Part shown: positions 19,441-54,724 of the stretch, piece after piece | How positions within the stretch are numbered: position 1 is the first letter of the stretch | Layout of the letters: each line of letters opens with the position of its first letter | Origin: Aphrocallistes beatrix | Taxonomy: Eukaryota; Porifera; Hexactinellida; Sceptrulophora; Aphrocallistidae | NCBI GenBank assembly: GCA_963281255.1 | Contig: OY725494.1 | Location: 1,935,934 to 1,999,933, forward strand | DNA length: 64,000 nt | Direction of reading: 5' to 3' | The notes under the pieces: model-generated | The model's database searches: none | What the model saw: only the letters and a program-made list of their open reading frames with translations | What the model was told of the DNA's origin: nothing | Position numbers and translations under genes: made by a program

Positions 19441-19773
19441 CATAGCATTCTATACACTAAGGCAATGGCGCGCTTAACATTTTTGGGACCAGGGATTGGT
19501 TAGTTAATTAGATGTTGTATGTTGATATTTTCTATATCGTCTTGGTAAAATAGAAATTTGATGTTAAATTTATTAACTCCACCCCTTAGACATCTTATAA
19601 ACCATATTAGATTATTTTTGAATCCATACTTTAATATTTCACTTTTACGTTTTATTGCAATTCCAATATTCCATTAATATTTAAGAAATTGACGCCATTC
19701 TGATTGTGAAAGGAGTTTATCAATCATTATGTCTAGTGATGATTCAATTAAAGTATGATACAAAAGCCAAATA

Positions 19774-20076
19774 ATGTTTATTCTTAAACATTATTTGGTT
19801 TGTGCAAATTTTACTTCGAGATATCACTTCCCACATCAAAACAATCAAGTACAGCTTGGAGTGCAATTTGTTTTTTATACACCCATAATGTATATTTACA
19901 AAATTTATACCAATACCTTAGAAAGTTCTATTTTCATTTCCACTTTCATCCTCTCTTACTACTTTCAAATACATCTTTCAATTCAACTTTCATGCTCTAC
20001 GTACTACTTTCAATTACCACTTTCATCCTCTACTTATGTACTTCTTTCAATAACAACTTATTTTGAATATTCGGAG
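19774..20076. promoter_or_regulatory. 5' leader of the P transposase with CTTTCA repeats
   Basis: Upstream of the transposase ATG lies a degenerate tandem of roughly 30 bp (CACTTTCATCCTCT-x-CTTACTACTTTCAA, about 19935-20060). The sequence is open in one frame but has no recognisable domain, so it is taken as leader or promoter DNA of the transposon, not protein. Confidence 0.35.
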
Positions 20077-20232
20077 ATGTCCTGTCTTGTCCCAGGCTGC
20101 AGATCCAATTATTTGGGGGAAGATAAATCAACCTCGATTTTTAATTTTCCCAAAGATGAGCGATTGCGCGAACAATGGTTCAGTGCCATTCCCAGACCAA
20201 GGAAGGACTATGAAGACCACAAACATATGAAG

Positions 20233-20297
20233 GTATTCAATTGGAATTATTTATTTATAACCTTATACAGTATATTGAATTCCAATTGTACCTATAG
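20233..20297 (+). other. Intron in the THAP domain of the P transposase
   Basis: AAG|GTATTC at the 5' side and TACCTATAG|GTATGC at the 3' side. Phase 0: splicing joins HMK to VCIRHF, restoring the Cys and His of the THAP C2CH set. A later AG (20316-20317) would give the wrong phase and lose VCIRHF. Confidence 0.8.
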
Positions 20298-21065
20298 GTA
20301 TGCATACGCCATTTCAGAGAAGTTGACATCGAGAGAACACACCAATATTTTGATGGACTGCGAACTGTCACTGTCATCCGAGATAGAGTAGCCCTAAAGA
20401 AAGATGCCGTGCCAAGCATATTTCCTAACTGTCCTTCCTACCTATCTGAGTCGAATTCCAAACCGAAGAGACTTTCGAAAGATGACAAGGAGCAATTAAT
20501 GATGGAAGCTGCCTACACTCAGAGCTTAGCTGATAACGAAGAAACAATAGATAAGTTTCTTGTTGATTCATTTTCTGAACTTCTCTCTAAGTTACATTTC
20601 ATTGATCTCACAAACGGTTGGATTTCTCAACATTCCGAAAACAACCCTTTATATTTTTTGAAAATAGCCATTGCTGATTCGGGACCTATTATCGAACGTT
20701 CAGTTTCAATTGACCATGATTTGTTTATCAAAGCATTTGGTATTAACAGCAGTCCGATTAGTCTTTCAAGGATTTCAATTCATGACACCCGCCAAATTGA
20801 AAGTTTACTTAATGAAGTAGATAAATTTACCACACCAACACCTAGTGAGCGAACCTCCTCTGAACTTTCAATTAACAACCATATAAAATTAGCTATCGAT
20901 CAGTTAAAAAGTGCAATTAACCTCGTTGAATTTGAGGCCCAAGATCTAGTTATACTTGACAGTGTCTTCCCCTGTACTGAGTCAATGAAAATTATGTTGC
21001 ATTTTATTGTAGGACAACTGACAAATTTGATTCTTTGGAAAAATAATCGACGGTATGATATACTA

Positions 21066-22392
21066 GGGCATTCAAAAAGTCTTGCGGGTCATACCATAAA
21101 ATAATAAATAAATGTCATAGAATATGTTTCGATGTATTATTTATTCGAAATACCCCCCTCCTACTTCTACACAGCGTTTCAATCTTTCCACCCACTTTAT
21201 GAATGCATTTCTGTACTCTTCTTCGGGGATGGATTTGAAGAAGTGGTACAGGGCCGACCCGAGGGTTTGTTTCGACTCAAATTCCCTGCCTTGAAGGTAG
21301 ATTTTGAGCTTGGGGAAAAGCCAAAAATCACAGGGAGCTAGGTCTGGTGAGTAGGGTGGGTGGGGAAGTAAATATAATCCCTCTGATTCCAAGAAATTTT
21401 TAGTGAGCTTGGCTGTATGGGAGCTAGCATTATCTATCAATAATTTTATTCCCCTCATTTTAGCCTTGGGACGGAGCTCTTCCACTTTTTTATTAGGTTT
21501 GGAAGTACTTTCTCTGTAAAAAACGTTGCGTTTAATGTTTTACCACTTTCAGAAGGTATTTGCAAGACTATTCCACTACTATTGAAGAAGATCGTGTACA
21601 TGACCTTCGGTTTTCTGAAGTCGGGCCTAGGAATTTGGGCCGGTCTTTCGTCCTTTCTCACCCATGATCGCATTTTATACTTGCTGTAAGGGGTTGAATA
21701 TTAGACCCAAGTCTCATCCCCGGTTATAACTTCAGCTAGGCGTCTAGGATCACAACCGTCATAGGTTTCCAGGAGTTTCTTGGCAGTCTTTACACGTGCG
21801 AGCTTTTGTTGATCGCCGAGGTTTTGTGGGACCCACTTACCGCAAATGGATCGGAAACCAAGCTGAGTCGTCAGAATGGAATGAATGGCCCCCGATGAAA
21901 TCTCCATACTCTGCTTTAACTGCTCGATTGTTATACACTTATCTTCCCGACTTTGCTCTCGATTAGAGCAACATTCTCTGGGGTGCTGACGGACACCGGT
22001 CTCCCAGATCGAGGTAGATCTGACACGTCTGTATTTCCAGACTGAAATCGTGCAGCCCATCGCTCTACCGTTGATCTGGAAGGGCAGTCCATGCACAATA
22101 GCTCCTGCAACTCGTTGTAGATGAGTACCGGATGGATGCGGAGTTTTGTCCGAAACTCAATGTAAGCTCTCCATTTCAGATTAAAATTGTCATCCTTGGA
22201 AGCCATAATTTTACCAGTATGTTGAAGTGATGTGTGAATAAATTGATCAGAAATTTGTAATTTTCATTCAATCAAGCTAAAATTTTCTGCAAATCAAGCT
22301 AAGATATAAGGTTATGTTATAAATGAAAACTGATTTGTTTACTATTATAGTCTGCGAAATATATCATGACCCGCAAGACTTATTGAACGCCC
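21066..22392 (-). mobile_element. mariner element 1, inserted in the P transposase
   Basis: Ends GGGCATTCAAAAAGTCTTGC and, as complement on the right, GGGCGTTCAATAAGTCTTGC, flanked by TA at 21064-21065 and 22393-22394. Length 1327 bp, the usual mariner size. It is younger than the P element, which is younger than HINE H4. Confidence 0.92.
21141..22206 (-). pseudogene. mariner 1 transposase, frameshifted (DD34D)
   Basis: Starts at the ATG at 22206 (MASKDDNFNLKWRAYIEFR). The N-terminal helix-turn-helix pair is readable (STVERWAARFQSG; IEQLKQSMEISSGAIHSIL), then the linker WVPQNL, TGDETW (first Asp), LLIDNASSHTA (second) and PPYSPDLAPCDFWLFP (third), with 34 residues between the last two Asps. 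Four pieces in different frames, overlapping at about 22096-21931, 21700 and 21485-21455, show at least three frameshifts. It ends with YFE near 21141. Not functional. Confidence 0.88.
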
Positions 22393-24846
22393 TAGTATTA
22401 ACTCAAGTATTTTCACTTAAAATTCACGGACTATCACCAGCTTGTTATAGAAATAGACAGTCGTCTAATTGTTTAATTTTACCACATGAGCGAAACTTGA
22501 TCATATAAAAAACACCCTGGGGATAGATGGTGACTATTTTCGAATTCTTAATGAAATAACCTCTAAGTTTAGTGACAGAGAACGCCATGTGATACTTCAA
22601 ATGGATGAAGTTCATATACGCAGTGATGTAGCATATAAAGGAGGTAAAATCTTTGGCTCTATAGATAATCCTAACGATCCTGCAACAACGGTATTTTCGT
22701 TGATGGTTTCAAGTTTAATGAGAAAGTTTTCAACCATTGTGCGTCTCATACCTTTGGGGTCTTCCTCTGCTGCTTATTTACATCCGATAATTACCAAAGC
22801 TATAAATGATATCGAGGCATGTGGTCTCTTTGTCGAAGCAGTTTGTACTGACAACTACCCTTTAAATGTTAGCCTCTATAAATTATTTTCTGATGACGGG
22901 AAAACATTGCAACCTAAGGTTATACATCCTTCGAATCCAGAGCGTAGTATTATATTATTCTTTGATATTGTACACATTATCAAGTCAATTCGTAACAATT
23001 GGCTAAATCTAAAAGATTTTGAAAAGACTTTTATCTATCCCAAGTTTGATGACTGTACAAAACATTTACTAACACAATCCGCAAATCCATCTTGCACTCA
23101 ATTAAGAATTTCTGTTCCTACTGCCAACATTATTTTGAATGCCACGCAACTGACGAAGTCTAGCTATCCCCCAATATGTTATGCAGCTTTGAAGATCTTA
23201 GAACCCTGTTCAAAGCTGACAAATTTTCTGTCATTAAGAGAGCCCCAAAATTGACCTCGAAATCATGTTGGCCATCTCAATTAGAGCGGCAAAATGTAAA
23301 CTTGGCTTTGAAAATTTTTCATGAGTCTACAGCTGCAGGTCTTTCTAGTTTTATTTATCATACAAACATTGGTAAAACCCATCAAACCGTTGATTTCCTC
23401 AATTTGATAAATCATATCTGGAGCATTTTCAATGTTAATTGGGTAGGGAAAGACATTCGTTTCAATAATCCATATCTAGCCCCACTGCGCCACAACGATG
23501 AAAGATTATCATTTTTGGAAAACATTGTTAAATGGCTTGATTGTTGGAGAGCTATTCCATCAGCTAGGGGTAAGCTTACACCTCAAACATTTACCAGTTT
23601 GAGACACACTTGTCTGGCTCTTCCACTCTTAATTAAAAGATTAACACAAGAATGCGGTTATGAATATTTGCTGACATCCCGAATACAAAACGACTCACTA
23701 GAACATCACTTTGGTCTTTATCGCCAAATGTCTGGCTCCCATTATAACATATCCTTTTGTCAAATTTTAGAGAGCGAGCGTAAGCTTCAGTTATCTAACC
23801 TTCTTAAATTTCTGTATATTGAACAAACTGGTTCCGATACCATATGCCTTAAGGAATATATAAGAAGTTTTGCAGATGATAATGACGAAGAAGGATATTT
23901 AGAAATTGATATAGAACATTTTACAGATGTTTTGCTTGATATTAAACCCCCTATTTTTGATAACTCTCAAATTGAATGTATTAATTATGTTGCGGGATAT
24001 GCAGTATTTTCTTATTTTAAACAATCCTCCGAATGTTTAGTTTGCCATGAATTTTTGACTTGTCCAAAAGATATTCAAATCAATAACGATACAGGATTTT
24101 CATTGATTGATCTGCTCGATAGAGGTTCCCTTAAATATCCATCAGAAAGTGTCTACCAATCTGTCGTAACTATGTACGAAATATTTAGTAAGATAGATAA
24201 TCATCCTATTTTAAGTCGTCGATTTTATGAGGGACCCTGCCGAAGAAAATTAGTTGTGATTACATTACTTGAAATTGAGAGAAATTCCAGCGATATCTGG
24301 AGGGGGTGGTGTGTGTGTATGACATCAAAATGGGATATTCTTAAGAAGTTATTCACAACAGTCGCAAATTGCATTTTGTCTAAGAAAGTAAAAAATTTTA
24401 ATAACACTGTTATTGGTCGTGATAATACCAAACTTCAGAAATTTGCTTCCTAATTCCTCCTTCTTCTAGATATTCAACTTAAATAGTTCACAACAGCTAA
24501 GACGATGAGCGAAACACCAATTAGTTAAGAAACGCAGCTCTCACAGCAGGCGAGGACAGACTCTTTCTATTTAAAGAATACTCTATCAATACATATTAAA
24601 ATACTATATTTATATTTATCATTCTTTGTTTGTTAAAAAAGTGTAGAAAAACATTAAACTGCCTCTAATATGTTTCTAAATTATTCTAACTTAATGGTAA
24701 AGGTGATAAATCTAATAATTATTATTGAACATTCACCAAAAACAATATAAATCATAATCGCATATTGCAGATTCCTTAATTAACTAACCAATCCCTGGTC
24801 CCAAAAATGTTAAGCGCGCCATTGCAATAGTGTATAGAATGCTATG

Positions 24847-37707: not shown

Positions 37708-38719
37708 CATAGCCTACTATAATAAGGCCTCAGAGTAACTTGCGAATTTGGCACTAGGGATGCAGTAGAAGATGGTTGAAGAAATACATGAGCTGCCTTA
37801 AATCATTAACAAAGCCCAATAGAGATTAGGAATGTATTACCAGCATATATAAATATGGTGTCAAAGCACCAATATCCGTTGTGAAAATCTAGACTAGTCA
37901 TCAAATGATTGCGCCACAGGCTATATTTGGGAGGTCGTTTAAGGGCACTTCTAAGTGTTTTTATTATAAAGTTTTTCGCATAGAACTGAGAAGTGAATGT
38001 GTTAATACTAAAAATTTGGAATTTTTTCATGGAATGTTCTTACATTCCAGTGTTGCTATGGAAACGTGTTTCGGTCAGTTGGGGCTATATTTTGAAAATA
38101 GCGATAGCTAGACATTCAAATCTAACCCCATTTGATAGCAAATAGGCTACTTCCTATTAACGAGTTATTAGACATTTTATCATATTGGTCACATTTGGTA
38201 ATTTGTCGAATATCTCGTAAACCATTGAATTTAGACATATAATTTGTATTATAGCTTAATAGGAAGTAGCCTATTTGCTATCAAATGGGATTAAATTTGA
38301 ATGTCTAGCTATCGCTATTTTCAAGATATAGCCCCAACTGACCGAAAAACGTTTCCATAGCAACACTGGAATGTAAGAACATTCCATGAAAAAATTCCAA
38401 ATTTTTAGTATTAACACATTCACTTCTCAGTTCTATGCGAAAAACTTTATAATAAAAACACTTAGAAGTGCCCTTAAACGACCTCTGAAAATCACTAAAT
38501 TTGACCCAAATATAGCCTGTGGCGCAACCATTTGATGACTAATCTAAATTTTCACAACGGATATGGGTGCTTTGACACCATATTTATATATGCTGGTAAT
38601 ACATTCCTAAGCTCTATTGTGCTTTGTTAATGATTTAAGGCAGCTCATGTATTTCTTCATCCATCTTCTACCGCACCCCTGGTAAAGTTAGTCTTAGGCC
38701 TTATATATAGTAGGCTATG
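37708..38719. mobile_element. CATAGC palindromic element, copy 1 (7-bp duplication)
   Basis: Starts CATAGCCTACTATAATAAGG and ends ...CTTATATATAGTAGGCTATG. The arms are complementary over about 500 bp each, with the centre near 38190 (ACATTTTATCATATTGGTCAC). Flanks: GCTGAAT at 37701-37707 and GCTGAAC at 38720-38726, a 7-bp target duplication with one change. Apparent reading frames inside are shadows of the palindrome; no protein is expected. Confidence 0.88.
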
Positions 38720-38726
38720 GCTGAAC

Positions 38727-39793
38727 CATAGCCTACAAAATATAAGGCCTCAGAGTAACTTAACCAAGGATGCGTTAGAAGATGGTTGAACTAATACATG
38801 AGCTGCCTTAAATAATTAACAAAGCACAATAGAGCTTGGGAATGTATTACCAGCATATATAAATATGGTGTCAAAGTACTCATATCCGTTGTGAAAATTT
38901 AGATTAGTCACCATATGGTTGCGGAATAGGGTATATTTGTGACAAATTTGGTGATTTTCAGAGGTCGTTTAAGGGCACTTCTAAGTGTTTTATTATAAGA
39001 TTTTTCGCATATACCTGAGATGTGAATGGGTTAATACGAAAAATTTGGAAATTTTCATGGAATGTTGGTACATTCCAGTGTTGCTATGGAAACGTGTTTG
39101 GTCAGTTGACGTTATATCTTGAAAACTGCAATGGCTACACATTCAAATGTAATTCCATTTGATAGCGAATATACTACTTCCTATTAAGTGATAATATAAT
39201 TTCGACCTCTAAATTCAATAGTTTATGAGATATTCGACAATGTACCATATTGGTCACATTTGATAATTTGTCGAATATCTCATAAACTATTGAATTTAGA
39301 GGGCGAAATTAAATTATCACTTAATAGGAAGTAGTATATTCGCTATCAAATGGAATTACATTTGAATGTGTAGCCATTGCAGTTTTCAAGATATAACGCC
39401 AACTGACCAAAACACGTTTCCATAGCAACACTGGAATGTACCAACATTCCATGAAAAAATTCCAAATTTTTCGTATTAACCCATTCACATCTCAGTTCTA
39501 TGCAAACATTTTACAACAAAAACACTTAGAAGTGCCCCTAAACGGCCTCTGAAAATCACCAAATTTGTCACAAATATAACCTATTGCGCAACCATATGGT
39601 GATTAATCAAATTTTTAACAACGGATATGGGTACCTTGATACCATATTTATATATGCTGATAATACATTCCTAATCTCTATTGTGCTTTGTAAATGATTT
39701 AAGGAAGCTCATGTATTAGATCAATTGTCTTCCTCCGCATCCCTAGTCCTAAATCCGCAAGTTACTGTGAGGCCTTATATACAGTAGGCTATG
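38727..39793. mobile_element. CATAGC palindromic element, copy 2
   Basis: Begins CATAGCCTACAAAATATAAG immediately after the right duplication of copy 1 and ends CAGTAGGCTATG. The centre is near 39250 (TTGTCGAATATCTCATAAAC facing its complement). The two arms are more alike than those of copy 1. Its right flank (GTATTAC) does not match the left, so copies 1 and 2 may have recombined. Confidence 0.85.
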
Positions 39794-40241
39794 GTATTAC
39801 TAATTACATAGTAGAGAAATATAAATTGAGGCAACAACAATGTTTCATACGGGGGAGGGGGGGCTGGGTAGGATAAGTGTCCGAAAGCCGCCTATTTATT
39901 ACAGTAACGCAAATCTAGAAATTACTACAGTAGAATAAATTTTCACACAGCTAGAAACAACAAATTTAAGAACATTTTCAAATAAGACATGACCATAATC
40001 GCATCGGATAGTTATAATTAAACCTGTAATCTCATTAACCCGTGCATGCCTATAGTTAAAGTGAAAGTAAATTGAAAGTGAACTGAAAGTGAAAATGAAA
40101 ATGGGGTCATTTCTATTTATACCTTTGACCCCACAGGCATTGCCGGGTTAAATGCTCGAAAATTATAGGTACACTTTTTGAAGCAGTATTTATTTGTATT
40201 AATCTGTAAACTAAGAGGAGAAAATTGTCAGATATATATAT
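39794..40241. other. No gene recognised
   Basis: Contains a G-run (about 39850-39868) and a short GTGAAAGTGAA-type repeat at 40060-40100. No known element. Confidence 0.35.
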
Positions 40242-40556
40242 ACAAGCGCGCTTCGCTTGCTTGCGCTGCGCGGTTGGCGGACACTTTGTGTCCGCCGAAG
40301 GCGCCCTGCGGGGGCCTGTGGTCACCATTGATTAATTATATGGGAGATAACATCTCTAAATACGTCTGTCCTACTGTTATAATCGATACCGCACGAAAAA
40401 ATCACCAAATTTATCAATTTTAAAAATTTTGATGCATAATGATGACGTCATAACAGAGTGATGAGTCATCATTTTTTGATGATAGTTGTATCTTTTGTGA
40501 GGTATGTTAGTATAAAGATTCTATTAAAATTTCAGTCTTCTATCTCGATGTATATA
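40242..40556 (-). repeat. HINE copy H7
   Basis: Complement orientation with a full-length but altered tail: ACAAGCGCGCTTCGCTTGC, then GGCGGACACTTTGTGTCCGCC. Block B is cut near 40548, where the TA tract and an inserted MITE follow. Block A in complement appears beyond the MITE at 41353-41377. Confidence 0.85.
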
Positions 40557-40558
40557 TA

Positions 40559-41328
40559 CAGGGTGACACATAAGTTCTGTTACAAGCTTCATTAGGTATA
40601 AAATTTATTATACTAAAACGATCTTAGTTATTATGGTCCTTAGAGATTGTAATTCGAATATTTTCAATGATTTTAAAAGATTTATCGATTCTATGACTTA
40701 GAAATGTGTTTTGTATGGTGAATTTTGAGAAAAAAATGTGTCCTGGCACGCAGCGAAAATCGCGAATCAGGGCCCACTGCTTCTGTAAAAAAATGTCTTC
40801 ATAATCGATGTCCCATGACGATTTAGCACCAGGTACCTTTCATTCGCCATAGAAATATTTCATAAATCCACTGAATTCGTTATCAGAAACTAGAAAAAGT
40901 TATTCAGTCGCAGTTCAAATCAGGTACATTTTGCAAAATTCCCCAAATGGCACTTTTTTTCACATCACAAAAGAATCTAATCCAATTGGTCATCAAAATG
41001 CACTGATCTGAACATCTTATATCTCTACAAATTTAGAGTGTTCGAGGAAAATGTGTGAGCTAATTTTTCCTAGAATTTGAAGACTTTGGGAAGATAACTT
41101 GAAAAGCAGTGGACCTTGATTCACGATTTTCGCTGCGTGCAAGGACACATTTTTTTTCTCAAAACTCACCATACAAAACACATTTCTAAGTCATAGAATC
41201 GGAAAATCTTTTAAAATCATTGAAAATATTCGAATTACAATCTCTAAGGACCATAATAACTAAGATCGTTTTAGTATAATAAATTTTAAACCTAATGAAG
41301 CTTGTAACAGAACTTATGTGTCACCCTG
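40559..41328. mobile_element. Palindromic IS630-type MITE in a HINE TA tract
   Basis: Ends CAGGGTGACACATAAGTTCT and complement, flanked by TA. The arms match for about 240 bp (through TGTGTCCTGGCACGCAGCGA), with a central unique stretch at about 40795-41105. The terminus closely resembles that of the maT-like element at 62499, so that family probably mobilises it. Confidence 0.85.
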
Positions 41329-41382
41329 TATATACGTATATATATATATACAAACATTAATCGAGTTTTAATAGTAAAGATT

Positions 41383-41662
41383 AAATGAGATATTGTACCT
41401 AATATCTGAAATAAAAATTAGAAAGATCAATCAACTAAACGAAGAGTTATTAAATTATTAAGGTAGGGGCCGTCAAAAAAATGTGTCCGATCCTTAAAAA
41501 TGTACAAAATCCCAATGGGGCTGTATCTCAAAAACTAGTGTGAAACGAAGACTAATATTACGGGTTCCTTCCAAAGACAATACAAATATTCTTTGTTGAA
41601 ACTCTCATAGAAATATGAGAGAGGAGTGTATGACCACTGGTCGATTCCAAATGGAATGACCC
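41383..41662 (-). mobile_element. Element Y fragment (second copy)
   Basis: Complement of the outer part of the 30867 copy, ending GGAATGACCC at a TA tract. It lacks the mariner and so shows the empty site (TAATATTACGGGTTCC). Confidence 0.75.
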
Positions 41663-41674
41663 ATATAAATATAT

Positions 41675-42064
41675 CAGTAACGAATTGATTGAAGAAACTG
41701 TCGGGGACAGAAAGCTGATTTTTGGCATGTGGGAGTTTTTCGACCATAACTCAACCAGTTTAAGTGATAGAAGGCTGAAATTTTAATAGAATGTGTATAT
41801 TAATACATTTCACATATGATACAACTATCATCCAAAAGTGAAGACTCATCACTCTGTTATGACGTCATCATTCGCATCAAAATTGGAAAAATTGATAATA
41901 TTTGTTATTTTTCAATGATATTGATTATAACAGTAGGATAGACGTATTTAGAGATATTATATCTTTTTTAATTAATCAATGTGGCTCCAGGCGCCCAAAG
42001 GGCGCCTCTGGTGGACACAAAGTGTCCGCCAGCCGCGCAACGCAAGCTAGCGAAGCGGGCTTGT
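41675..42064 (+). repeat. HINE copy H8 (internal deletion)
   Basis: CAGTAACGAATTGATTGAAG, then an internal loss of about 100 bp after TGGGAGTTTTT, then TGACGTCATCATTCGCATC and the tail GGCGCCC-AAA-GGGCGCC / GGTGGACAC-AAA-GTGTCCGCC, ending TTGT. Confidence 0.85.
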
Positions 42065-42246
42065 CCTTATAATAACATTAGATGTCGAAATCAATGGGAA
42101 GGAGGAGGAGGGAAAAGAAGAGGACTGGTACCATTAACAAAGCCTGGACGTGTACGTCCAGGCTAATAGCCATAGTCGACAGATTGGTAAATCCTTACTA
42201 TTAAAACTCGATTGATGTTTGTTTATATATATATTTATATATATTA
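42065..42246. other. Spacer with inverted repeat and HINE block A
   Basis: Holds GCCTGGACGTGTACGTCCAGGC (42142-42163, a perfect palindromic hairpin) and, near 42184, a HINE block A with TA tract leading into the MITE at 42247. Confidence 0.6.
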
Positions 42247-42773
42247 GGGTGTTCCAAAAAATCCAAAGTTTGAATCTTATAATGCACACTCTTCAAATGG
42301 TTTACTTTGATCACCAAGTATTCACCATAAGATTTTCAGGCAATTTGGAGATGGTTTAGTGGTTGCGCAAAGTAGCATCCCCCTCGTGCTAATTTATAAT
42401 GGGATATGTCTGGGTTGAGGCCAGAAGTTGTAAAAAGCCTACATCTGACATTTGAATATATTAGTAGCTTGATTTTTGTGATATTTGGTGATTAGGTCCC
42501 AGCTGTTTTCACCAATATCTCGGTACCGGTATATTTTAGGTTATTAAAATGTATTATTAGCTGATATACTAAAACCACCATCAAATTTACAACTTCTGAC
42601 TCAACCCAGACATATCCCATCATAAATTAGCACGAGGGGTAGGCTACCTTGCGCGACCACTAAACCATCTCCAAATTGCATGAAAATTTTATGGTGAATA
42701 CTTGGTGATCAAGGTAAACTATTTGAAGAGTGTGCATCATAAGATTCAAACTTTGGAATTTCATGCAGCACCC
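42247..42773. mobile_element. Palindromic MITE in a HINE TA tract
   Basis: GGGTG at the left and CACCC at the right between TA pairs (42245-42246, 42774-42775). The arms pair for about 200 bp (AAAGTTTGAATCTTATAATG; CATATCCCATYATAAATTAG), with the centre near 42490. Non-coding. Confidence 0.85.
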
Positions 42774-42787
42774 TAATATATATATAT

Positions 42788-43256
42788 CTGTAACGAATTG
42801 ATTGAAGAAACTGCCAAGCACAGAAAGCTGATTTTTGGCATGTGGGAGTCTTTTAGCTATGGCTCTACTACGTTCTGAGCTCAGACGAAAATGTCGACTC
42901 ATCATGGATTATGACGCCATTGTCACATTTTTTATAACTAGAAATTTCAGATTTTCGACCATAACTCAGCCATTTTAGGTGATGGAAGGCTAAATATACC
43001 TCACATATGATGCTACTATCATCAAAAAATGATGACTCATCACTTTGTTATGACGTCATCATTACGCAACAAAATTTTAAAAATTGACAAATTTGGTGAT
43101 TTTTCGTGCGACATCAATTATAATCGTAGTACAGACGTATTTAGAGATGATATCTCCCTTATAATTAATCAATGTGACCTCAGGCGTCCAAATGGCGCCT
43201 CCGGCAGACACAAAGTGTCCGCCAGCCGCTCTGCGTAAACAAGCGAAGCGCACTTC
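42788..43256 (+). repeat. HINE copy H9
   Basis: Block B from CTGTAACGAATTGATTGAAG, with the tail GGCGTCC-AAA-TGGCGCC, GGCAGACAC-AAA-GTGTCCGCC and a worn third hairpin, ending CACTTCT. Together with the block A at 42184 this is a complete A-TA-B copy whose TA tract was hit by a MITE. Confidence 0.85.
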
Positions 43257-43632
43257 TATTTTATTAAATATAAAGTCAATCAATTTGCGTGTTTTTTATT
43301 GTTATTTTTTAGACGAAAATTGAGGAAGCAAAGTAAGTTTTTAACCCACGCTTGCCACATGAATGTGTTGCGTCATTTCCGGTTTAAGCCATTTTCAATG
43401 GGGAAGCCATATAAGTTTGGGGTTACTACTATAAATAGAAAAATCCCAAATGCTTTCAAGGGTTAAAATTCTTTTTTTGAAAAAAATAAAGTCAGATTTG
43501 ATTATTTATTTCTATTTCTAATAACTTATCTAGGGTCAAAGGAATAAGAAAAATTGTAAGTTAAAAGTATTTTTATTAATTGAATGAAATATTAATTGTA
43601 ATACTTATCTTAATAAAATTTTTCTAGGTCCC

Positions 43633-44082
43633 ATGGGAGAAAAGCGGGGAAAGCCGGCACTCAAGTCCGGGCCCTCAATCGGCCAAACCCCAAGTCCGGC
43701 CCCCTCTATTGACGCTCGACCCTTAAGTTCGGCCCCCTCTATCGACGCCCGGGCCTTAAGTCCGTCCCCCTCTATCACCCGGCCCTTAAGTCCGGCACCA
43801 TCAACCAGTCGGGCAACAAGCCCGGGTGTTAATAAGTAAGTTAAAATGACCTCAATCCCTTAGATTGGTAGCTTAATATTTACCTTTATTTATTTAATTA
43901 TATTATATCTCAAGGCCTCGCAAGAAGAAGGGAAAAAAGTAAGTAATTTCTAAAAGCTTGGGATAATTAGTTTATATCTTTACTTTTTAATGTACGTATG
44001 TAATTGAATTAAGAAATTATTTATAAACACTTTCTTTAAAATGCTGAGTATTATAATTATAAATTTGTGCAAAAGAAAATAA
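43633..44082 (+). CDS. Candidate small multi-exon gene, Pro/Ser-rich with basic tail
   Basis: A 208-nt stretch (43628-43835) has a good acceptor (TTTTTCTAG) and donor (AATAA|GTAAGT) and, from the ATG at 43633, encodes an imperfect repeat of about 11 residues (APSIDARPLSS, APSIDARALSP, SPSITRPLSP). A 24-nt microexon (43915-43938, TATCTCAAG|...|GTAAGT) is in phase and adds PRKKKGK. A third (44076 on, CAAAAG|) supplies a stop at 44080-44082. Predicted length is 77 residues with a lysine-rich end. Two further GTAAGT-bounded mini-exons lie upstream (43313-43332 and 43534-43555); only the second joins in frame. GC content is far above its surroundings. Unknown function; could also be chance. Confidence 0.35.
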
Positions 44083-44845
44083 AGAATGAAATGTAAGTTG
44101 TAGTAGATCTACTATAATAATTAAGTTTCTATCAAATGTTTGACATGTGTAATTTGAAATAAAATGTTGTTGATAGGCAAGTCCTACCCTTTAAATAGAC
44201 ATTTGATTAGTCGACTTTCAATTATCATTCTCTATTTTAGATTCTGACATATATATTAGATTAAAACATCGACAGTTATCTTTCATTAACATTCTTTAGT
44301 TTCCCGGGTTAGCCGGGAAACTAAAGAATGTTCAAGAGAAGTTTATACACATTTTAATACTGAAGTATTTTACATTAAATTTACAAAATTAAATCAGTTA
44401 GAATAAATGATATATTGGTCAATTTGTCTCTCTTATATTATTTTTTAAGGTTAGATATCTCTGATGCTTGATGTATTTATACAAACAAAAAAGGAATGAG
44501 ATCTGTATAAAGACGGAATATACATATTATATGATAACAATCAGATGTTTGCTAACTTTAGAGAGTGTATATATACTGTTTCTTTTGACTAATGACTGAA
44601 ATTTGATGAATATCAATACACAATTGATCGTGATGAATAATCAATATGTTGAAATTCATGAGTACATTGATTGTATATAGATTTTCAATCACTATAATGA
44701 ATTAAAGAAAAAACCAGCGATGCAAGTTCGAAACACAGACGAAATGTCGACTATTTCAGAAATATTTTAAATAATATATAAGTTGTATTAAAGATAACAA
44801 ATTTGAGGTAGTAGTACATCTAAAATATTTTCGAATATGTATGTT
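44083..44845. other. AT-rich intergenic stretch
   Basis: No coding signal. It contains the perfect 20-bp hairpin listed separately and several ATATAT runs. Confidence 0.35.
44288..44332. repeat. Perfect 20-bp inverted repeat (hairpin)
   Basis: Arms 44288-44307 (AACATTCTTTAGTTTCCCGG) and 44313-44332 (exact complement) with a 5-nt spacer GTTAG. No mismatch. Confidence 0.95.
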
Positions 44846-44937
44846 AATAAACAATGAACCATAGGCACCCAAATGGCGCCACAGCAAACACAAAGTGTTT
44901 GCCACCCGCGCTGGGCAAGCAAGCGAAGCGCGCTTGT
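44846..44937 (+). repeat. HINE copy H10 (tail only)
   Basis: From TTAATAAACAATGAACC to CGCGCTTGT. Its second hairpin reads GCAAACAC-AAA-GTGTTTGC: both arms differ from the usual GCGGACAC / GTGTCCGC yet still pair. Confidence 0.85.
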
Positions 44938-45360
44938 ATATATATACACATTAATCTAGTTTGAATCGTAAAGATATATATATCTGTAATGAATTGATCG
45001 AAGAAACTGCCGGCGCAGAAAGCAGATGTTTGGCATGTCTTTTGGCTATGGCTCCACTAAGTTCTGAGTTCAGACGAAAATGTCGACTCATCATAGAATT
45101 ATGACATCATTATCACCTTTTTCACAATTAGAAATTTCAATTTTTTGAACATTACTCAGCCATTTTAAGTGATAGAAGGCTGAAATTTTAAGAGAATGTG
45201 TATATGTACTAATTTGTCTCACAATGATAGAACTATCATCAAAAAATGATGACTCATCACTGTTATGCCGTCATCATTACGCATCAAAAATTTTAAAATT
45301 GGCAAATTTCTTGATTTTTCGTGCGATATCGATTATAACAGTAGGACAGTCGTATTTAGG

Positions 45361-46531
45361 GAGGGAACCCAACACTTCCCCCTAGACACTTCCCACATGT
45401 TAATGAATGACACTTTTCCTGGGACAATTCCTCCCTTCAAAAGAAACTTGCATCGGGAATATATTCTTACGAATGCCAAAGGAGAAGAAACGATGGGTGT
45501 AACGCTAGGATTAAGATCTTGGATATTTCAATCGTCGATGCAATTAACGATCACACACATGCTCCTGCGATGAATCGCGTAGAAGTTCAAAAGCTGCGTC
45601 ATGGAATTAAGCGTACAGCAATTGATTCCCAAGAGACTCCTCAACAAATTATATCATCTGCTGTGATAAATATTAGCGATGGTGCTGCTGGCATAATTCC
45701 TCCAATAAGAACCATTATAAGGTGTATTACGTCGATATAAGCAGAATGAAGGTATACCCCATCCGATACCACTAGTGGCAAGCGAAATGGATATTCCTGA
45801 AGAATTTAAGTTAACAACCCATGGTGAACAATTCATTCTATTTGATAATGAAAAGGTTCAAGTGGTAGAATGCTCATATTTTCCACATCAACTAATCTTG
45901 ACCTTATAAATAGATCTAAATTGTGGTTAGCTGACGGTACCTTTAAGACAGTTTCACAATTTTTTTACCAGCTATATACAATCCATGCTATCTCCAATGG
46001 TAGAGTATTCCTCTGTATATAAGATTCTCACTAGAATTATGGAATGTAAATAATCGGGTTGAAGAAGAAATTCCGAAAACAAAGCGTATCATAAACTTCT
46101 CAAGGCAGCGATCCTTTCATTTTATCCAAATATTTGGACAGTCCTTAAAGTCTTGAAGGAGGAAGCGTTAAAGAGATTGGAGATGATTCAATTGGAAACT
46201 TGCGAAGCACCTCCTCAGAAAATACGTTACCGTGAATTTAATAACAGATACAAGCTATGGTTAAGGACTATGCCAAAAGAAATATCTGAGGAATAGCTCA
46301 TAATTTATCTTTCTAAAATTTTTATATTATATTCCTTTTAGCCTAAATTGTTTGGTACTAGTCCTATTATTATGAAATTTCAAATAAATTAACCAGATAA
46401 TTATTACATTATATATTAAGACAGCTTAATATAAAAACAATCAAAGGGGGGAAATGTCCGAAGGAAAATATCATTCATTAACGGGGGGGAAATGTCCTGG
46501 AGGGAAATGAATAGGGGGAAGTTTCCTAGAC
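45361..46531 (+). mobile_element. MULE element 2 (non-autonomous by deletion)
   Basis: 1171 bp. The left end has AACACTTCCCCCTAGACACT; the right end, in complement, has GGGTCTAGGAAACTTCCCCC. Flanks are GTATTTAGG (45352-45360) and CCATTTAGG (46532-46540), 7 of 9 matching, the duplication size expected of MULEs. Right-side subterminal repeats of GGGGGGAAATGTCC occur at 46445-46500. Confidence 0.85.
45390..46295 (+). pseudogene. MULE 2 transposase relic
   Basis: Readable in several frames: SIVDAINDHTHAPAMNRVEV (about 45523-45580, the end of a FLYWCH-like/spacer region), then RQQIISSAV-like text, IPHPIPLVASEMDIPEEFKL, GEQFILFDNEKV and KLWLADGTFKTVSQFFYQLY (near 45920-45980), with the first catalytic Asp in LADGTFK. 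It then jumps to the C-terminal part ILSFYPNIWTVLKVLKEEAL and APPQKIRYREFNNRYKLWL (to 46290). The middle of the catalytic domain, with the second Asp and the Glu, is deleted. Sister of the 10.5-kb copy by motif, but with different termini. Confidence 0.8.
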
Positions 46532-46706
46532 CCATTTAGGAATATTATTACCGTTATAATTAATCAATGTGACCCCAGGCATCCAAAGGGTGCCTCGGAC
46601 GGACACAAAGTGTCCGCTATCCGCTAACGCGCAGCGCAAGCAAAAGAAGCGCGCTTATATATATATATAGAGAGAGAGAGATTAATCGAGTTTTAATAGT
46701 AAGGAT

Positions 46707-47772
46707 TAGGGTTGCAAAATTCCCGGGAAATTTCAAATGTGGACACTTTCCTGGAAACTTTACTGGAATTTTGGGAACTGGAAATATTCCCGGGAATTTA
46801 TAAGACCTGGAAATTTCTGCATAGCGTTTAAATAAATATGATTGTTTCCGAGGCATTTTACTGAGGAATATAAATTGAATTCAATTAAAAACTTTCTTTA
46901 TTTGCTTCTAAATACTCATAATAAAGGAAAAATGTAAAAAAAATGTAAATTATACAACCAGTGCCGAACTGATTAGAGATGGATCAATAATAAATGTAAT
47001 ACAAAATCGAATACCAGTTGTAAGTATAAGTTATCCGATTCTTCTATATACGATTAACAATCGGGAACCCATAAAATAGTATAACAATACGTTTCTGACT
47101 AGTTATTAAGTTAAAACTGATATGAAACAAACAGAAGTTTATTGTTTATAATAATATATTGGCTACAGCTCTACTCAATAAATATCTGACAAATTTTAAC
47201 CGACTTTTATTTAACCTCATTGAAATGAATATTGGCAATAATTGTTCTGAATCTTGTGATTCTTGTGAATAACAATACAATTCAAAATATTGAATACAAA
47301 AATTGTGGCTGGTAAAATCGTATACTGAGATGCAAATTAGATGGACTTTTCATATCTACTTACCCATAGCATTATATACACCAAAGCAATGGTGCTGATT
47401 GGTGGACTTGGACTAGGGATTGGGGGCATACTTAATTTCCGGGACGGGACGGGACCGTCCCGGAAATTAGGTATGCCCAGGGATTGGTCAGATCAGTTAG
47501 TTTACTTTTATATCAAAATTCTAATACAAAGATAGTGTATAGAATGCTATAATGGTTTAGCCAGGACAGGACTATTGACAAATACAAACAAACAAACAAA
47601 ATAATGCATTTTAGAACTGGGCTACTAAACAATATTATAGTCAGCACAGTAAAATCTTTGAATATTCCTCATTATTAAAGAAAAACGAAAATCCAAAAAA
47701 TCCCCGAAAATTTCCAGGACTTATAAATTCCCGGTAATATTCCCGTAAAATTTCCCACCCTTTACAACCCTA
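46707..47772. mobile_element. hAT-type element with perfect 8-bp duplication
   Basis: Ends TAGGGTTGCAAAATTCCCGG and, in complement on the right, TAGGGTTGTAAAGGGTGGGA; subterminal AATTCCCGGGAA words follow on both sides. GTAAGGAT occurs at 46699-46706 and 47773-47780. It landed in a HINE block A (AATAGTAAGGAT), which is restored when it is removed. No transposase remains; a P-like MITE lies inside. Confidence 0.9.
47365..47551. mobile_element. Short P-related palindromic MITE
   Basis: Left CATAGCATTATATACACCAA and right TAGTGTATAGAATGCTAT match the ends of the 19441-24846 P element, including the CAATGG and AGGGATTGG words further in. The centre is a hairpin TTTCCGGGACGG / CCGTCCCGGAAA around 47453. 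The last base and the target duplication are not clear. Confidence 0.8.
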
Positions 47773-47790
47773 GTAAGGATATATAAATAT

Positions 47791-48223
47791 TTGTAAAGAA
47801 TTGATAGAAGAAACTGCCAAACAGAAAGTTGATTTTTGGCATTTGGGAGTCTTTTGACTATGGCTCGACTAAGTTCTGACCTGAGACTAAATGTCGACTC
47901 ATCATGGAATTATGACGTCATTGTCACCTTTTTGTAATTAGAAATTTCTGTTTTTCGACTATAACTAGCCATTTTAGGTGATAGAAGGCTGAAATTCAGA
48001 ATGTGTATATTAATATGTCTCACATTTGATGCATCTATCGAAATTATCAAAATGAACAAATTTGGTGATTTTTCGAGCGATATCGATTATAACAGCAAGA
48101 TAAATTTATTTTGTGATGTTATTTACCTTATAATTAATTAATGCGAGGTTAGGCGCCTTTTGGGCCCCTCGGCGGGCACTTTGTGTTCGCCAGCCGCGCT
48201 GCGCAAGCAAGCGAAGCGCTTGT
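47791..48223 (+). repeat. HINE copy H12
   Basis: TTGTAAAGAATTGATAGAAG to AAGCGAAGCGCTTGT. The tail has GGCGCC-TTTT-GGGC..., a GGCGGGCAC-TTT-GTGTTCGCC hairpin, and a third hairpin shortened by two bases. Confidence 0.85.
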
Positions 48224-49258
48224 TCTTAAAATTTCAAAGGATAAAACATATTTCAGTTGGATTTCAGTTTCAGTTGAATTTCATTTTCAGTAGCAGCACT
48301 ACAACCATCTCAAATATTTTGCAAGAAATGCAGCTGAACTGACGAGTCTAAACCGAGACGAAACACAAGAATGAGAATCTGAAGCATGACACTTGAGTTA
48401 ATCATTTTGTTTGCTTTTCTGAAGAATCAATAGGAACCCGAATGTGGTACAAACTTGCGCGGCGCGAGATAAGGATTACATTAGCGCGGCGGTACCTCGA
48501 CTTGAAGACTTTAACACTTCACTTGAGGTAACCACCTGGAGTTTGATGTCTAATGAATGTATAAGAGATATACTCTGTTGTACACACTTACGTAGCTCAA
48601 CACATGTGTGATGTGTTGCCCTTGACCTGAATGATTTAAAACGTCTACTCACTTGGGGTAACCATCTGAGTTGAGGCTTGCCTGGTGAATTGACTCACAA
48701 CATTATACATTTACATTCCATCTATACATTACCAAACACAAACGTACACATAGTACACTAACATCTGGAGAGGAAAGGAGGAGGACATCACGAACTTGTT
48801 TTTCAACTTTTTCCATTATCATTTTTATTGAGTATATTCCTTAGAATATTACTTAATTTTATCAATAATGTTACCATTTTGATATCTTTACAATGAATAT
48901 TTATATTTACTCAATAAATAAGATAATCTACTTGTAAATCTTACATAGTCATACGAGCGTATAATGCCTATTAGTGAAAGGGGTTTCAATAAATACATTA
49001 ATTAAAGGATTATTATAAATCTTCCAACATACCATACATACACGGATTACTTCATATTCCTTAAGAGAGTAATTTTATCTCATCACAGGTTGGTTGTATG
49101 AATGAGTAGGGATAATTTGCCATTGAACCGCACTGGATCTTTATTAAAATGGGGTTTAATTAATCGAAGGAACTATTTTGCGAGATATGACGATTAAATT
49201 ATCAAAAATACTGAACAATTTAGAAATAATTTCACATCTTCGGTCTTATTTTATACTA
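48224..49258. other. No gene recognised; two-copy GGTAACCA motif
   Basis: The words CACTTGAGGTAACCACCTGG (about 48530) and CACTTGGGGTAACCATCTGA (about 48649) are alike, about 119 bp apart. Otherwise AT-rich and without open frames. It may be unique host DNA. Confidence 0.35.
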
Positions 49259-49348
49259 ACTAATTCAGTGAGTAAGAATCACACAGTTAGCAGATATCCC
49301 TAAACTAATTCAATGAGTTAAATTCGCACAGTAGTAGATATCCCTATA
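49259..49348. repeat. Degenerate 45-50-bp tandem repeat (left part)
   Basis: Units of the type TCAATGAGTTAAAATCACACAG-TAGCAGATATCCCTA occur twice here and continue on the far side of the element, at 51826-51945. Confidence 0.7.
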
Positions 49349-49447
49349 CATAGCCTACTCAATATAAGGCCTGGTATCTAATGTACCATGGATGAAGTAG
49401 AGGATGGGAATTTAAATTCTTCAAAATATATATTCCATCTTTTAGTT

Positions 49448-49727
49448 CAGCGTTTCTCAGCCCCCCAGGGAGGCCACGAGGCCTTCGGCGGGGGGCTATG
49501 TTTAAATATTGACTCAAACATACGAATCTTAACGTTAGTTAGCAATTCTTTTACTTTGATTTTGTTTGGCTTTGAGTTTTTTGCTTACCAGTCTCGCGTG
49601 GCGAATAAAATAATAGGACGTAAATACGTTAAAACGAAATCTACGTTTTTTATTGAAGAGCAGGGGGCCACGAGTGCTGAGGGTCTCGGTAGGGGGGCCA
49701 CGGACCATGAAAGGTTGAGAACCACTG
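49448..49727. mobile_element. hAT-type MITE (CAGNGNTTCTCA ends)
   Basis: CAGCGTTTCTCAGCCCCCC at the left and GGTTGAGAACCACTG at the right. Flanks TTTTAGTT and CTTTAGTT (7 of 8). GC-rich arms (GGCCACGAGGCC; GGGGGGCCACG) around an AT-rich centre. Confidence 0.88.
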
Positions 49728-49735
49728 CTTTAGTT

Positions 49736-50512
49736 CGTATTCTACTGTCGATCTCTTTGTCTTTGACAATATTTTGTTTCCGACTCTTTCGTGGGTATGA
49801 CGATGTCAAAATATTTTGATAAAACCTGAATTAATGATCATAATATGAAAATATTTCCGAGTCATTTTCTTAAAGAGTATATATCATCATTTGCTATGAC
49901 TTCACCAGACAAAATCTTGGGGAATTAAATTCTTTCAGTGGTTTCAAGGGAAGCAGTCAACTCGTACAAAATGCCAAAATGTACGATTTCTATAGCATTT
50001 TAGATGAGATATCTGTGAAGAACACAGCGAAAAGCAGGATTTTCTATTGACTTGGTACAAGTTGGTAAGCTGCATGAATTGGCATGTTGTATCAATCGGA
50101 ATGTGTTACGAGTTGGCATATTGTACAAGTTGGCATGTGGTACGAGTTGACAGACATTCGTTTCCAGGCTTGTTTGAAGATTTCATGAGGCAGGTTTTAC
50201 TAAACTCCAGAACATCACTTCTTAAAATTTTCAGTGTGAACTCGTAACAGGATCGAAGAGGATTAATCCTCCACCACAGTCCCATTTAAATGCCACACAG
50301 CCTTCTTGAAAGGGGGTCCTGTCCCGTTGTGACTGTGTTCTCAATATTATCAGAATCATCAATTTGCTAAAATAGAAAATCTCGTCTGACTACTGGAACA
50401 AGTAATTTACACGATCTAGAGAATAGTTACTCTACACTCGGAAAGAGAAAAGTTGATATCGTGAAAATAGATAGTAGAGTAGATAATATAAATCAAAAGA
50501 TATAATTATAAG
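49736..50512. other. Interior of the CATAGC element, no gene
   Basis: Besides the minisatellite at 50048-50152 nothing is recognised. An open stretch at 50047-50247 is only the minisatellite read through. Confidence 0.35.
50048..50152. repeat. Degenerate 17-20-bp minisatellite
   Basis: About five units of (GA)GTTGGCATGTTGTACAA-like text, e.g. AATTGGCATGTTGTATCAA, AGTTGGCATATTGTACAA and AGTTGGCATGTGGTACGA. Confidence 0.75.
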
Positions 50513-51595
50513 CATAGCCTGCTGTAGATAAGGCCTCACAGTAACTTGCGGATTTGAGACTAGGGATGCGGTAGAAGATGGTTGAACCAATACATGGGAT
50601 GCCTTAAATCATTAACAAAGTACAATAGAACTGAGGAATGTATTACTACTTGTAGCATATATAAATATTGTGCCAAAGTATTAAAATCCGTTGTTAAAAT
50701 TTAGACTAGTGTCCATATGATTGCGAATAAGTTATATTTGTGACAAATTTAGTGATTTTAGAGGTCGTTCAAGGGCACTTCTAAGTGTTTTATCATAAAA
50801 TTTTCGCATAGAACTGAGATGTGAATGGGTTTAAATACGAAAAATTTGGAATTTTTTTATTGAATGTTGCTACATTCTAGTGTTGCAATGGAAACGGGGT
50901 TTGGTCAGTTGAGGTCATTTCTTGAAAACCGCAAGAGCTAAACATTCAAAAGTAATTCCATTTGATAGCGAATAGACTATTTCCTATCAAGTGCTTGTAT
51001 AATTTATTTTTCTAAATTCAATCGTTTACGAGTGTTTAGACACTGGCAATTTATCATATTGGTCACATTTGGTAATTTGCATATCTCGTAAACCATTGAA
51101 ATTAGAAGTCGAAATTATATAATCGCTTAATAGGAAGTAGTCTATTAGCTATCAAATGGAATTACATTAAAATGTTTAGCTCTGCGGTTTTCAAGATATG
51201 ACCCTAACTGACCAAAACATGTTTCCATATCAACACTGGAATGTAGCAATATTCCATGAAAAATTCCAAATTTTTCATATTAAAACCATTCACATCTCAG
51301 TTCTATGTGAAAATTTTACAATAAAACATTTAGAAGTGCCCTAAACGATATCTAAAATAAATAAATTTGTCACAAATATAACCTATTACGCAATCATATG
51401 GTGACTAGTCTAAATTCTAACAACGGATATGAGTACTTTGACACCATATGTATAAATGCTATTAATACATTCATCAGTTCTATTGTGCTTTGTTAATGAT
51501 TTAAGGCAGCTCATGTATTAGTTTAACCATCCTCCACCGCATCCCTAGTCATAAATCTGCAAATTACTGTGAGGCCTTATATGCAGTAGGCTATG
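50513..51595. mobile_element. CATAGC palindromic element, copy 3 (perfect 7-bp duplication)
   Basis: Starts CATAGCCTGCTGTAGATAAG and ends CTTATATGCAGTAGGCTATG. TTATAAG flanks it exactly at 50506-50512 and 51596-51602. The arms are alike over about 500 bp and share sequence with copies 1 and 2 (CATTCCAGTGTTGC, TATTGGTCACATTTGGTAAT). Confidence 0.92.
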
Positions 51596-51825
51596 TTATA
51601 AGTAAAAAAAGTGTAGCGAACTGCTTATTAGTGGGCTAGGGATATATATTTATGAAATAAATAATCAAATACTAAACAAAAGTTTTATTGAAAGTTCGTG
51701 GAGCTTATACTTACCATGCAAAATTCAAACTAGATAGTTGTGGTTTACTAATAATTCTTATCCACTACATCATCCTTAGTCCAAAAATTGAGGTTGACAC
51801 CAGGCCTTATATTGAGCAAGCTATG

Positions 51826-54351: not shown

Positions 54352-54378
54352 TAGTAAATAGAAAATATGTGTTGATAC

Positions 54379-54716: not shown

Positions 54717-54724
54717 CTAAAAAA

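What the first reader, a model, noticed from the sequence alone, without database searches (positions are those of the whole stretch)
37708..51825. CATAGC palindromes with 7-bp target duplications: a likely P-superfamily MITE family
Seen: three palindromic elements of about 1 kb (37708-38719, 38727-39793, 50513-51595) and one longer relative (49349-51825) all begin CATAGC and end GCTATG. Two have readable duplications of 7 bp (TTATAAG exact; GCTGAAT/GCTGAAC), and the longer one has CCCTATA/TACTATA. The autonomous P-type element at 19441-24846 also has CATAGC...GCTATG ends and a 7-8-bp duplication (GTCTGTC[C]). Known: P elements make duplications of this size. Inferred: the palindromes are moved by a P-type transposase. 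Long-arm palindromic P MITEs would be unusual.
Basis: partly seen in the sequence, partly recalled or inferred. Interest (0 to 1): 0.75.

Follow-up and report, generated by a model that had tools for sequence, protein, structure and literature searches.

The report
Palindromic MITE family of P elements
This eukaryotic genome carries many copies of a roughly 1,000-base mirror-image (hairpin-shaped) jumping element that was almost certainly spread by P-type transposases of the same genome, and in one subfamily its two halves have changed together over time.

Summary
In detail: E1 (37708-38719), E2 (38727-39793) and E3 (50513-51595) are near-complete palindromes with CATAGC...GCTATG ends. The "longer relative" 49349-51825 is a non-palindromic element with E3 nested inside. 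The end motif has 2,019 genome matches, 0 for the reversed control. Of 71 family copies with two ends found, 57 have an exact 7-bp duplication, 7 one mismatch, 7 none; no 8-bp duplication was seen.

The P-transposase inference is strongly supported. Thirteen P elements, mostly picked for their ends, gave 9 exact 7-bp duplications, 2 with one mismatch, 2 undetermined. The closest matches the subfamily B end at 54 of 60 positions. Insertion sites share a symmetric motif.

The distance from terminus to inner box is 46/46 in most B copies and P elements, but about 45/36 in subfamily A; 36/36 was not seen in 78 elements. In B, 102 substitutions occur in both arms of a copy against 13 expected; in A the excess is not significant.

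Closest known: Galileo and Anopheles P-MITEs. Verdict: new variant of a known kind.

The parts
37708..38719 (.). E1, palindromic MITE, subfamily A, 1012 bp; flanks GCTGAAT/GCTGAAC
38727..39793 (.). E2, palindromic MITE, divergent member of subfamily B, 1067 bp; no target duplication found; unequal ends (inner box 36 bases from the left terminus, 46 from the right)
50513..51595 (.). E3, palindromic MITE, 1083 bp, inserted into the element 49349-51825; exact duplication TTATAAG at 50506-50512 and 51596-51602
49349..51825 (.). Outer, non-palindromic element with the same type of ends (about 1.39 kb without E3), 30-bp inverted repeat at 90%; ends resemble those of P element L113; unequal ends (36 and 45); flanks CCCTATA/TACTATA
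19441..24846 (+). P element with more divergent CATAGC ends, 70-bp inverted repeats (97%), exact 7-bp duplication GTCTGTC; interrupted by a mariner-like insertion
20077..20388 (+). THAP domain part of the window P transposase
   Evidence: Pfam PF05485, E=2.3e-8
22490..23251 (+). P-type RNase H part of the window P transposase
   Evidence: Pfam PF21787, E=1.4e-14
23164..24450 (+). C-terminal part of the window P transposase, weak match to the GTP-binding insertion domain
   Evidence: Pfam PF21788, E=8e-5, 23.5 bits against a cut-off of 24.8

Best explanation
E1, E2 and E3 belong to a large family of non-autonomous P-superfamily elements (foldback-type MITEs): two arms of about 0.53 kb around a loop of about 20 bases (read by eye from the B consensus). 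Shown: they share the outer 55-65 bp with P elements of the same genome, including an outer box (CATAGCCTACT..ATAAGGCCT) and an inner box (consensus GGACCAGGGATG), as well as the 7-bp duplication. Inferred: the P transposase binds these ends (probably through its THAP domain), pairs them and inserts the element with a 7-bp stagger at a symmetric AT-rich site. The ends come in two spacings: terminus to inner box 46 or 36 bases. B copies and 10 of 11 P elements pair 46 with 46; subfamily A, the outer element, E2, P element L113 and remnant L115 pair about 46 with 36. The rest of each arm is passenger DNA not found in the P elements compared. Shown for subfamily B: substitutions are shared by the two arms of one copy far more often than chance allows. 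Inferred: one arm is copied into or corrected against the other, in a hairpin or cruciform or during repair after excision.
For: Duplications: 57 exact of 71 family copies. P elements: 9 exact of 13, 2 with one mismatch, 2 with the second end not found. End identity of the B consensus: 54/60 to C16, 53/60 to L058. Transposase: THAP and RNase H domains by Pfam; profile match to the Drosophila P transposase structure 6p5a, E=0.00095. Target symmetry score 0.861 at the centre of the duplication against at most 0.277 at 24 other centres; 0 of 10,000 permutations reach it, the highest being 0.854 (53 sites, 3 of them P elements). Simple insertion of E3: 38 of 40 listed places uninterrupted. Arm co-evolution in B: 102 cells against 13.1, permutation maximum 41; 24 of 26 copies.
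Against: No copy was shown to move. The P transposase genes read (window, L058, L059, L060, L113) are broken into several frames by stops, frame changes or an insertion (introns were not modelled), so no intact source was seen. The end match is 90% at best, and lower for subfamily A (48/62 and 45/70 with C16). The P sample is biased: L058-L060 were picked for a visible end motif, the eight for end matches to L058, and L113 for the motif itself. Seven of 71 copies have no duplication. Arm co-evolution is not significant in subfamily A: 79 against 54, permutation maximum 85, and within-copy distance is slightly larger than between copies, 0.048 against 0.044. The window's own E2 has 0 symmetric and 42 one-arm substitutions.
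Confidence: 0.9

Rival explanations
1. The palindromes are moved by another superfamily (hAT, Mutator/Foldback, or another with 7-10-bp duplications) and the P-like ends are convergent.
For: Foldback elements have been suggested to belong to Mutator, and the D. virilis foldback Tetris has 8-10-bp duplications (PMC4079207, passages).
Against: The end similarity extends 55-65 bp with two separate conserved boxes. P elements here have the same 7-bp duplication. Of three long elements with these ends, one encodes P transposase and none showed an unrelated one.
Confidence: 0.04
2. Symmetric substitutions in the two arms are an artefact of assembly or polishing, in which reads of one arm corrected the other.
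For: The arms are nearly identical (B consensus arms differ by 0.74%), so short-read polishing could mix them; the assembly method is unknown to me. Indels are almost all one-arm (104 cells against 4 symmetric), which biological copying would also be expected to transfer.
Against: One-arm substitutions persist in the same copies (326 cells against 102 symmetric). Galileo repeats of one copy are also reported 98-100% identical.
Confidence: 0.2
3. Symmetric substitutions only mark several old palindromic source elements; arms are not corrected after insertion.
For: Some symmetric variants are shared by several copies (for example column 529, 5 copies); 9 of 64 distinct symmetric variants equal the subfamily A base.
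Against: 25 symmetric variants are private to one of 26 sampled copies, though the sample is small against the genome-wide number, so private does not prove post-insertion. Even source elements need some arm-to-arm copying to acquire matching changes.
Confidence: 0.4

Closest known systems
Galileo (P superfamily, Drosophila; PMC4168063, PMC3573991)
   Same: P-type transposase with THAP domain; very long inverted repeats; mostly 7-bp duplications; symmetric 15-bp target motif; many copies with two inverted repeats only; the two repeats of one copy 98-100% identical
   Different: Galileo target consensus GTATTAC, here about AATA-N-STTWAAS-N-TATT; here the arms do not match the P elements compared beyond about 55-65 bp; here the family is a near-complete palindrome with a loop of about 20 bases. 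No Galileo transposase was at hand for a tree.
P-MITEs of Anopheles gambiae (PMC1562414)
   Same: Non-autonomous elements with P ends, unrelated interior and the same duplication length as their P elements (passages)
   Different: 8-bp duplications; the words 'palindrom', 'foldback' and 'hairpin' do not occur in that paper's main text
Drosophila melanogaster P element (PMC7776569, passages)
   Same: THAP plus RNase H transposase family; symmetric 14-bp target motif (stated in PMC4168063); ends that differ in spacing, 9 against 21 bp, comparable to the 46/36 pairs seen here in subfamily A and a few others
   Different: 8-bp duplication; 31-bp repeats; here most B copies and 10 of 11 P elements have equally spaced ends
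Zebrafish Pdre2 (PMC10983969, passages)
   Same: P-type element whose end also begins CATA
   Different: 13-bp repeats, 8-bp duplication

Membership tests
P superfamily (mobilised by) | Partner element encodes THAP plus P-type RNase H transposase | tested here: met
   PF05485 and PF21787 in L058, L059 (on two frames) and the window element; PF21787 in L060; the C-terminal piece of L058 matches no Pfam family. 6p5a profile match E=0.00095. L113 frames are similar to L058. The eight P elements are called P by DNA similarity to L058.
P superfamily (mobilised by) | Ends shared with that partner | tested here: met
   Up to 54/60 positions for subfamily B, lower for A (48/62, 45/70 with the same P element); outer and inner box in both
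P superfamily (mobilised by) | Duplication of 7-8 bp | tested here: met
   7 bp exact in 57 of 71, none 8 bp; P elements here also 7 bp. The classical 8 bp is not met.
P superfamily (mobilised by) | Symmetric target motif centred on the duplication | tested here: met
   50 of the 53 sites are MITE sites, so the P elements' own motif was not tested separately
P superfamily (mobilised by) | Transposition by the P transposase | not testable with these tools
   needs a cell or in vitro assay
MITE | Non-autonomous, no coding capacity, high copy number | tested here: met
   Longest stop-to-stop frame 77 aa (E1), 56 (E2), 54 (E3); 2,019 end matches in the genome, all kinds of element together
MITE | Short length (recalled: usually under about 600 bp) | tested here: not met
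   About 1 kb; 'foldback-type MITE' is used loosely here. One 449-bp palindromic copy was read.
Galileo | Target consensus GTANTAC | tested here: not met
Galileo | Transposase groups with Galileo in a tree | not tested
   no Galileo transposase sequence at hand

The most novel reading that the evidence does not exclude
These near-perfect 1-kb palindromes pass through a hairpin or cruciform in which one arm templates correction of the other, so the family amplifies with its arms in concert, and substitutions shared by both arms are a genomic read-out of that folded intermediate. Their P transposase works on like ends (46/46) and on unlike ends one helical turn apart (46/36), but not on 36/36: a relaxed form of the unequal-end pairing described for Drosophila P.
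Probability: 0.3. Interest if true: 0.72.

Novelty: new variant of a known kind. Interest (0 to 1): 0.5.

Why it matters
It ties an abundant palindromic family to its transposase superfamily by shared ends, duplication length, insertion-site evidence and the coding body between such ends. It extends the Galileo-like architecture to a family that is almost all palindrome. The two end spacings, differing by about ten bases with 36/36 unseen, bear on whether unequal ends are a general rule for P transposases. The symmetric substitutions give a countable signature with which to ask how palindromic MITEs keep their arms alike, part of the open question of how MITEs amplify.

Tried and rejected
Rejected: 49349-51825 as a longer palindrome (interrupted non-palindromic element). 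Rejected: an 8-bp duplication (no exact 8; for L114 judged from the printed flanks). Rejected: arms derived from the P elements compared, since beyond 55-65 bp there is no match to L058, L059 or L060, and none at all to the window P element; a P subfamily not fetched could still be the source. One search shows equal spacing in 26 of 27 B copies and 9 of 10 C1 copies, but unequal spacing in 29 of 30 A copies (the thirtieth had one end unread) and in E2. Considered: the 449-bp copy L110 as evidence for snap-back copying; dropped, because by eye a deletion between short direct repeats explains it equally. Led nowhere: phmmer of the L058 N-terminal piece against the PDB found only THAP domains; alignment A1 mixed non-overlapping pieces and was not used; the paper search 'P superfamily' plus 'miniature inverted-repeat' plus '7-bp' gave 0 papers. 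The organism was not identified. The end-match count (2,019) is not a copy count: it includes P elements, partial copies and both ends.

Dropped rows: of 39 loci fetched (L036, L049-L053, L056) showed no two recognisable ends and are not in the duplication count. Cross-pairings of neighbouring elements were ignored (three in the window, one in L038); the outer element is counted apart from the 71. L061 is window E2 and is counted once. The 71 include copies altered by deletion or insertion (for example L054, L055, L057, L107-L111, L114). E3 was left out of the arm test of subfamily B because it is 12% from the consensus. L059 did not enter the pooled target sites because its ends exceed the pattern's mismatch limit. 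P elements C7 and C2a have only one end located. L115 is counted neither among the 71 nor among the 13 P elements.
Full report
OBSERVATION. Self-comparison gives 87%, 89% and 83% identity to the own reverse complement over the full length of E1, E2 and E3. E2 folds as a single strand into one long hairpin, -487.8 kcal/mol; no shuffles are offered at that length. The end motif CATAGCCTACTNNATATAAGGCCT has 7 matches in the window against 0 in 100 shuffles, and 1,021 plus 998 matches in the genome against 0 for the reversed pattern.

TARGET DUPLICATIONS. Of 39 loci fetched as subfamily A relatives, 32 had two recognisable ends: 26 exact 7-bp duplications, 1 with one mismatch, 5 without. In two of those five (L026, L042) a terminal CATAGC is doubled and, by eye, the flanks match again beyond it. 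Of 25 subfamily B loci outside the window, 23 are exact and 2 have one mismatch. Ten further copies from contig C1, taken from the end-motif list: 6 exact, 3 with one mismatch, 1 without. L114, a palindrome with an internal insertion, is exact. With the window's three (E3 exact, E1 one mismatch, E2 none), that makes 57 exact, 7 with one mismatch and 7 without, of 71. No exact 8-bp duplication was seen.

THE P PARTNERS. The genome search lists 131 matches to the P-type RNase H domain PF21787 (150 of 177 candidates scored). Of the ten loci returned with it, three (L009, L014, L017) carried CATAGCCTACTATACATAA[G/T]GCCT just upstream; L011 had a weaker relative and the others nothing convincing within about 1.5 kb. 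Fetched whole, the three are P elements L058 (3,642 bp), L059 (3,705 bp) and L060 (3,131 bp), with exact 7-bp flanks AATTAGC, GTGAGAT and TAGAGAC. L058 and L059 have THAP and RNase H domains, L060 the RNase H domain; the C-terminal piece of L058 matches no Pfam family. A profile of five such proteins finds the Drosophila P transposase structure 6p5a at E=0.00095. Eight further P elements, chosen from matches to L058 including its ends, were sampled by their ends: 4 exact, 2 with one mismatch, 2 with the second end not found. Of three longer elements bounded by the motif, L113 is another P element, L115 looks like a P remnant and L114 is a palindrome with an unidentified insertion; all three have exact 7-bp duplications. 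With the window P element (exact GTCTGTC) that is 13 P elements: 9 exact, 2 with one mismatch, 2 undetermined. Most of these were picked because of their ends, so they show that such P elements exist, not what share of all P elements they are. The transposase frames are broken; introns were not modelled.

WHAT IS SHARED. An alignment of ends shows two conserved blocks in P elements and palindromes: the outer 24 bases, and an inner box, consensus GGACCAGGGATG, with one to a few changes in several (GGACTAGGGATG in subfamily B). The B consensus end agrees with P element C16 at 54 of 60 positions and with L058 at 53 of 60; the subfamily A ends agree less (48/62 and 45/70 with C16), and the window P element least (36/61 with B). 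Blastn finds no similarity of the palindromes to L058, L059 or L060 beyond 55-65 bp, and none to the window P element. That the inner box is a THAP binding site is my inference.

TWO END SPACINGS. Subfamily A: 29 of 30 have one end at 43-45 and the other at 36-37, in either orientation; the thirtieth has 36 and one end unread. Subfamily B: 26 of 27 have 46/46; the exception is the window's E2 (36/46). C1 copies: 9 of 10 have 46/46, one has an end unread. P elements: 10 of 11 are equal (45-47 on both sides); L113 is 46/36. The outer element (36/45) and L115 (46/36) are unequal. So of 78 elements with both ends read, 45 are equal and long, 33 are unequal, and none is 36/36. Copies within a subfamily are not independent, so this rests on few lineages. 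Drosophila P ends also differ in spacing, 9 against 21 bp (PMC7776569, passages); whether the 46/36 pair is homologous to that is unknown.

TARGET SITE. Fifty-three distinct exact sites were pooled: 50 of palindromes and 3 of P elements. They show a symmetric motif centred on the middle base of the duplication, roughly AATA-N-STTWAAS-N-TATT. There is no C or G at 6 bases on either side of the centre in any of 53. The symmetry score is 0.861 at this centre and at most 0.277 at 24 other centres; 0 of 10,000 permutations reach it, the highest being 0.854. Symmetric target motifs centred on the duplication are reported for P (14 bp) and Galileo (15 bp) (PMC4168063, sections 8 and 12 read).

THE OUTER ELEMENT. 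E3 sits in a 1.39-kb element with related ends. Joining its flanks with one TTATAAG gives 40 listed genome matches (40 of 84 candidates scored), 38 of which run through the junction; the other 2 are the two halves in the window. This is direct evidence of a simple insertion with a 7-bp duplication.

ARMS. The majority consensus of subfamily B (27 copies) is 1,081 bp with arms 0.74% different; that of subfamily A (30 copies) is 1,069 bp with arms 2.1% different. In B (26 copies, E3 left out) the two arms of one copy are closer than arms of different copies, 0.0293 against 0.0376, 0 of 20,000 permutations. There are 102 cells in which both arms of one copy carry the same non-consensus base, against 13.1 on shuffling right arms (maximum 41 of 5,000); without CpG sites 92 against 11.9 (maximum 42). 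Of 46 variants seen once on each side, 25 are in the same copy, against 1.8 expected. Twenty-four of 26 copies have at least one symmetric substitution and 13 a private one; L083 and the window's E2 have none, E2 with 42 one-arm changes. They are spread along the arm outside the loop. Against this: in A the total is 79 against 54 with permutation maximum 85, and within-copy distance is not smaller (0.048 against 0.044), although 11 of 26 once-per-side variants coincide against 0.87 expected. Indels in B are almost all one-arm (104 cells against 4). So arm co-evolution is clear for substitutions in B and only partial in A.

MECHANISM. Shown: shared ends, shared duplication length, symmetric target, simple insertion, two end spacings, symmetric substitutions in B. 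Inferred: a P transposase pairs two like or unlike ends of the palindrome and inserts it with a 7-bp stagger; arm correction happens in a hairpin or cruciform, or during repair after excision using the other arm. That Drosophila P ends are not interchangeable is recalled.

KNOWN OR NEW. Galileo already combines a P transposase, long inverted repeats, mostly 7-bp duplications, two-repeat-only copies and 98-100% identity between the repeats of one copy (PMC4168063: abstract, sections 3, 8 and 12, and part 1 of 2 of section 4; PMC3573991: passages). Anopheles P-MITEs have P ends and unrelated interiors but 8-bp duplications (PMC1562414: passages). I found no description of a P-superfamily family that is a near-complete half-kilobase-arm palindrome in the searches (listings only); the library is partial. 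I therefore rate it a new variant of a known kind.

Noticed in passing
49448-49727: Inside the outer element lies a hAT-like short element with ends CAGCGTTTCTCAGCC...GGTTGAGAACCACTG and flanks TTTTAGTT/CTTTAGTT (read by eye); most of this stretch matches other genome places on its own.
   Followed up: partly
L042:258 and L026:1348: Two copies have the terminal CATAGC (or GCTATG) doubled at one end; the six flanking bases visible beyond it match the other side (read by eye).
   Followed up: no
L110:27-475: A 449-bp derivative that is itself a 99.3% palindrome, made of the outer 231 bases of each arm.
   Followed up: partly
14962-18694: Another element or structure with 850-bp inverted repeats, 99% complementary, 2 kb apart; no exact duplication at the arm borders.
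   Followed up: no
40553-41334: Inverted repeat with 184-bp arms (98%) ending TATATACAGGGTG, probably a different DNA transposon.
   Followed up: no
54316-54852 (-): A frame matching the N-terminal domain of OST48, a conserved host protein (Pfam PF03345, E=1.2e-13), amid transposons; could be an exon or a pseudogene.
   Followed up: no
L058:123-3764: This P element has 193-bp inverted repeats (97%), while relatives have 72 bp at 97% (L059) or 146 bp at 79% (L060): inverted-repeat length varies between relatives, as reported for Galileo.
   Followed up: partly
21101-22390: A mariner-like insertion interrupts the window P element (frames on the minus strand; identified by eye, borders approximate).
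   Followed up: no
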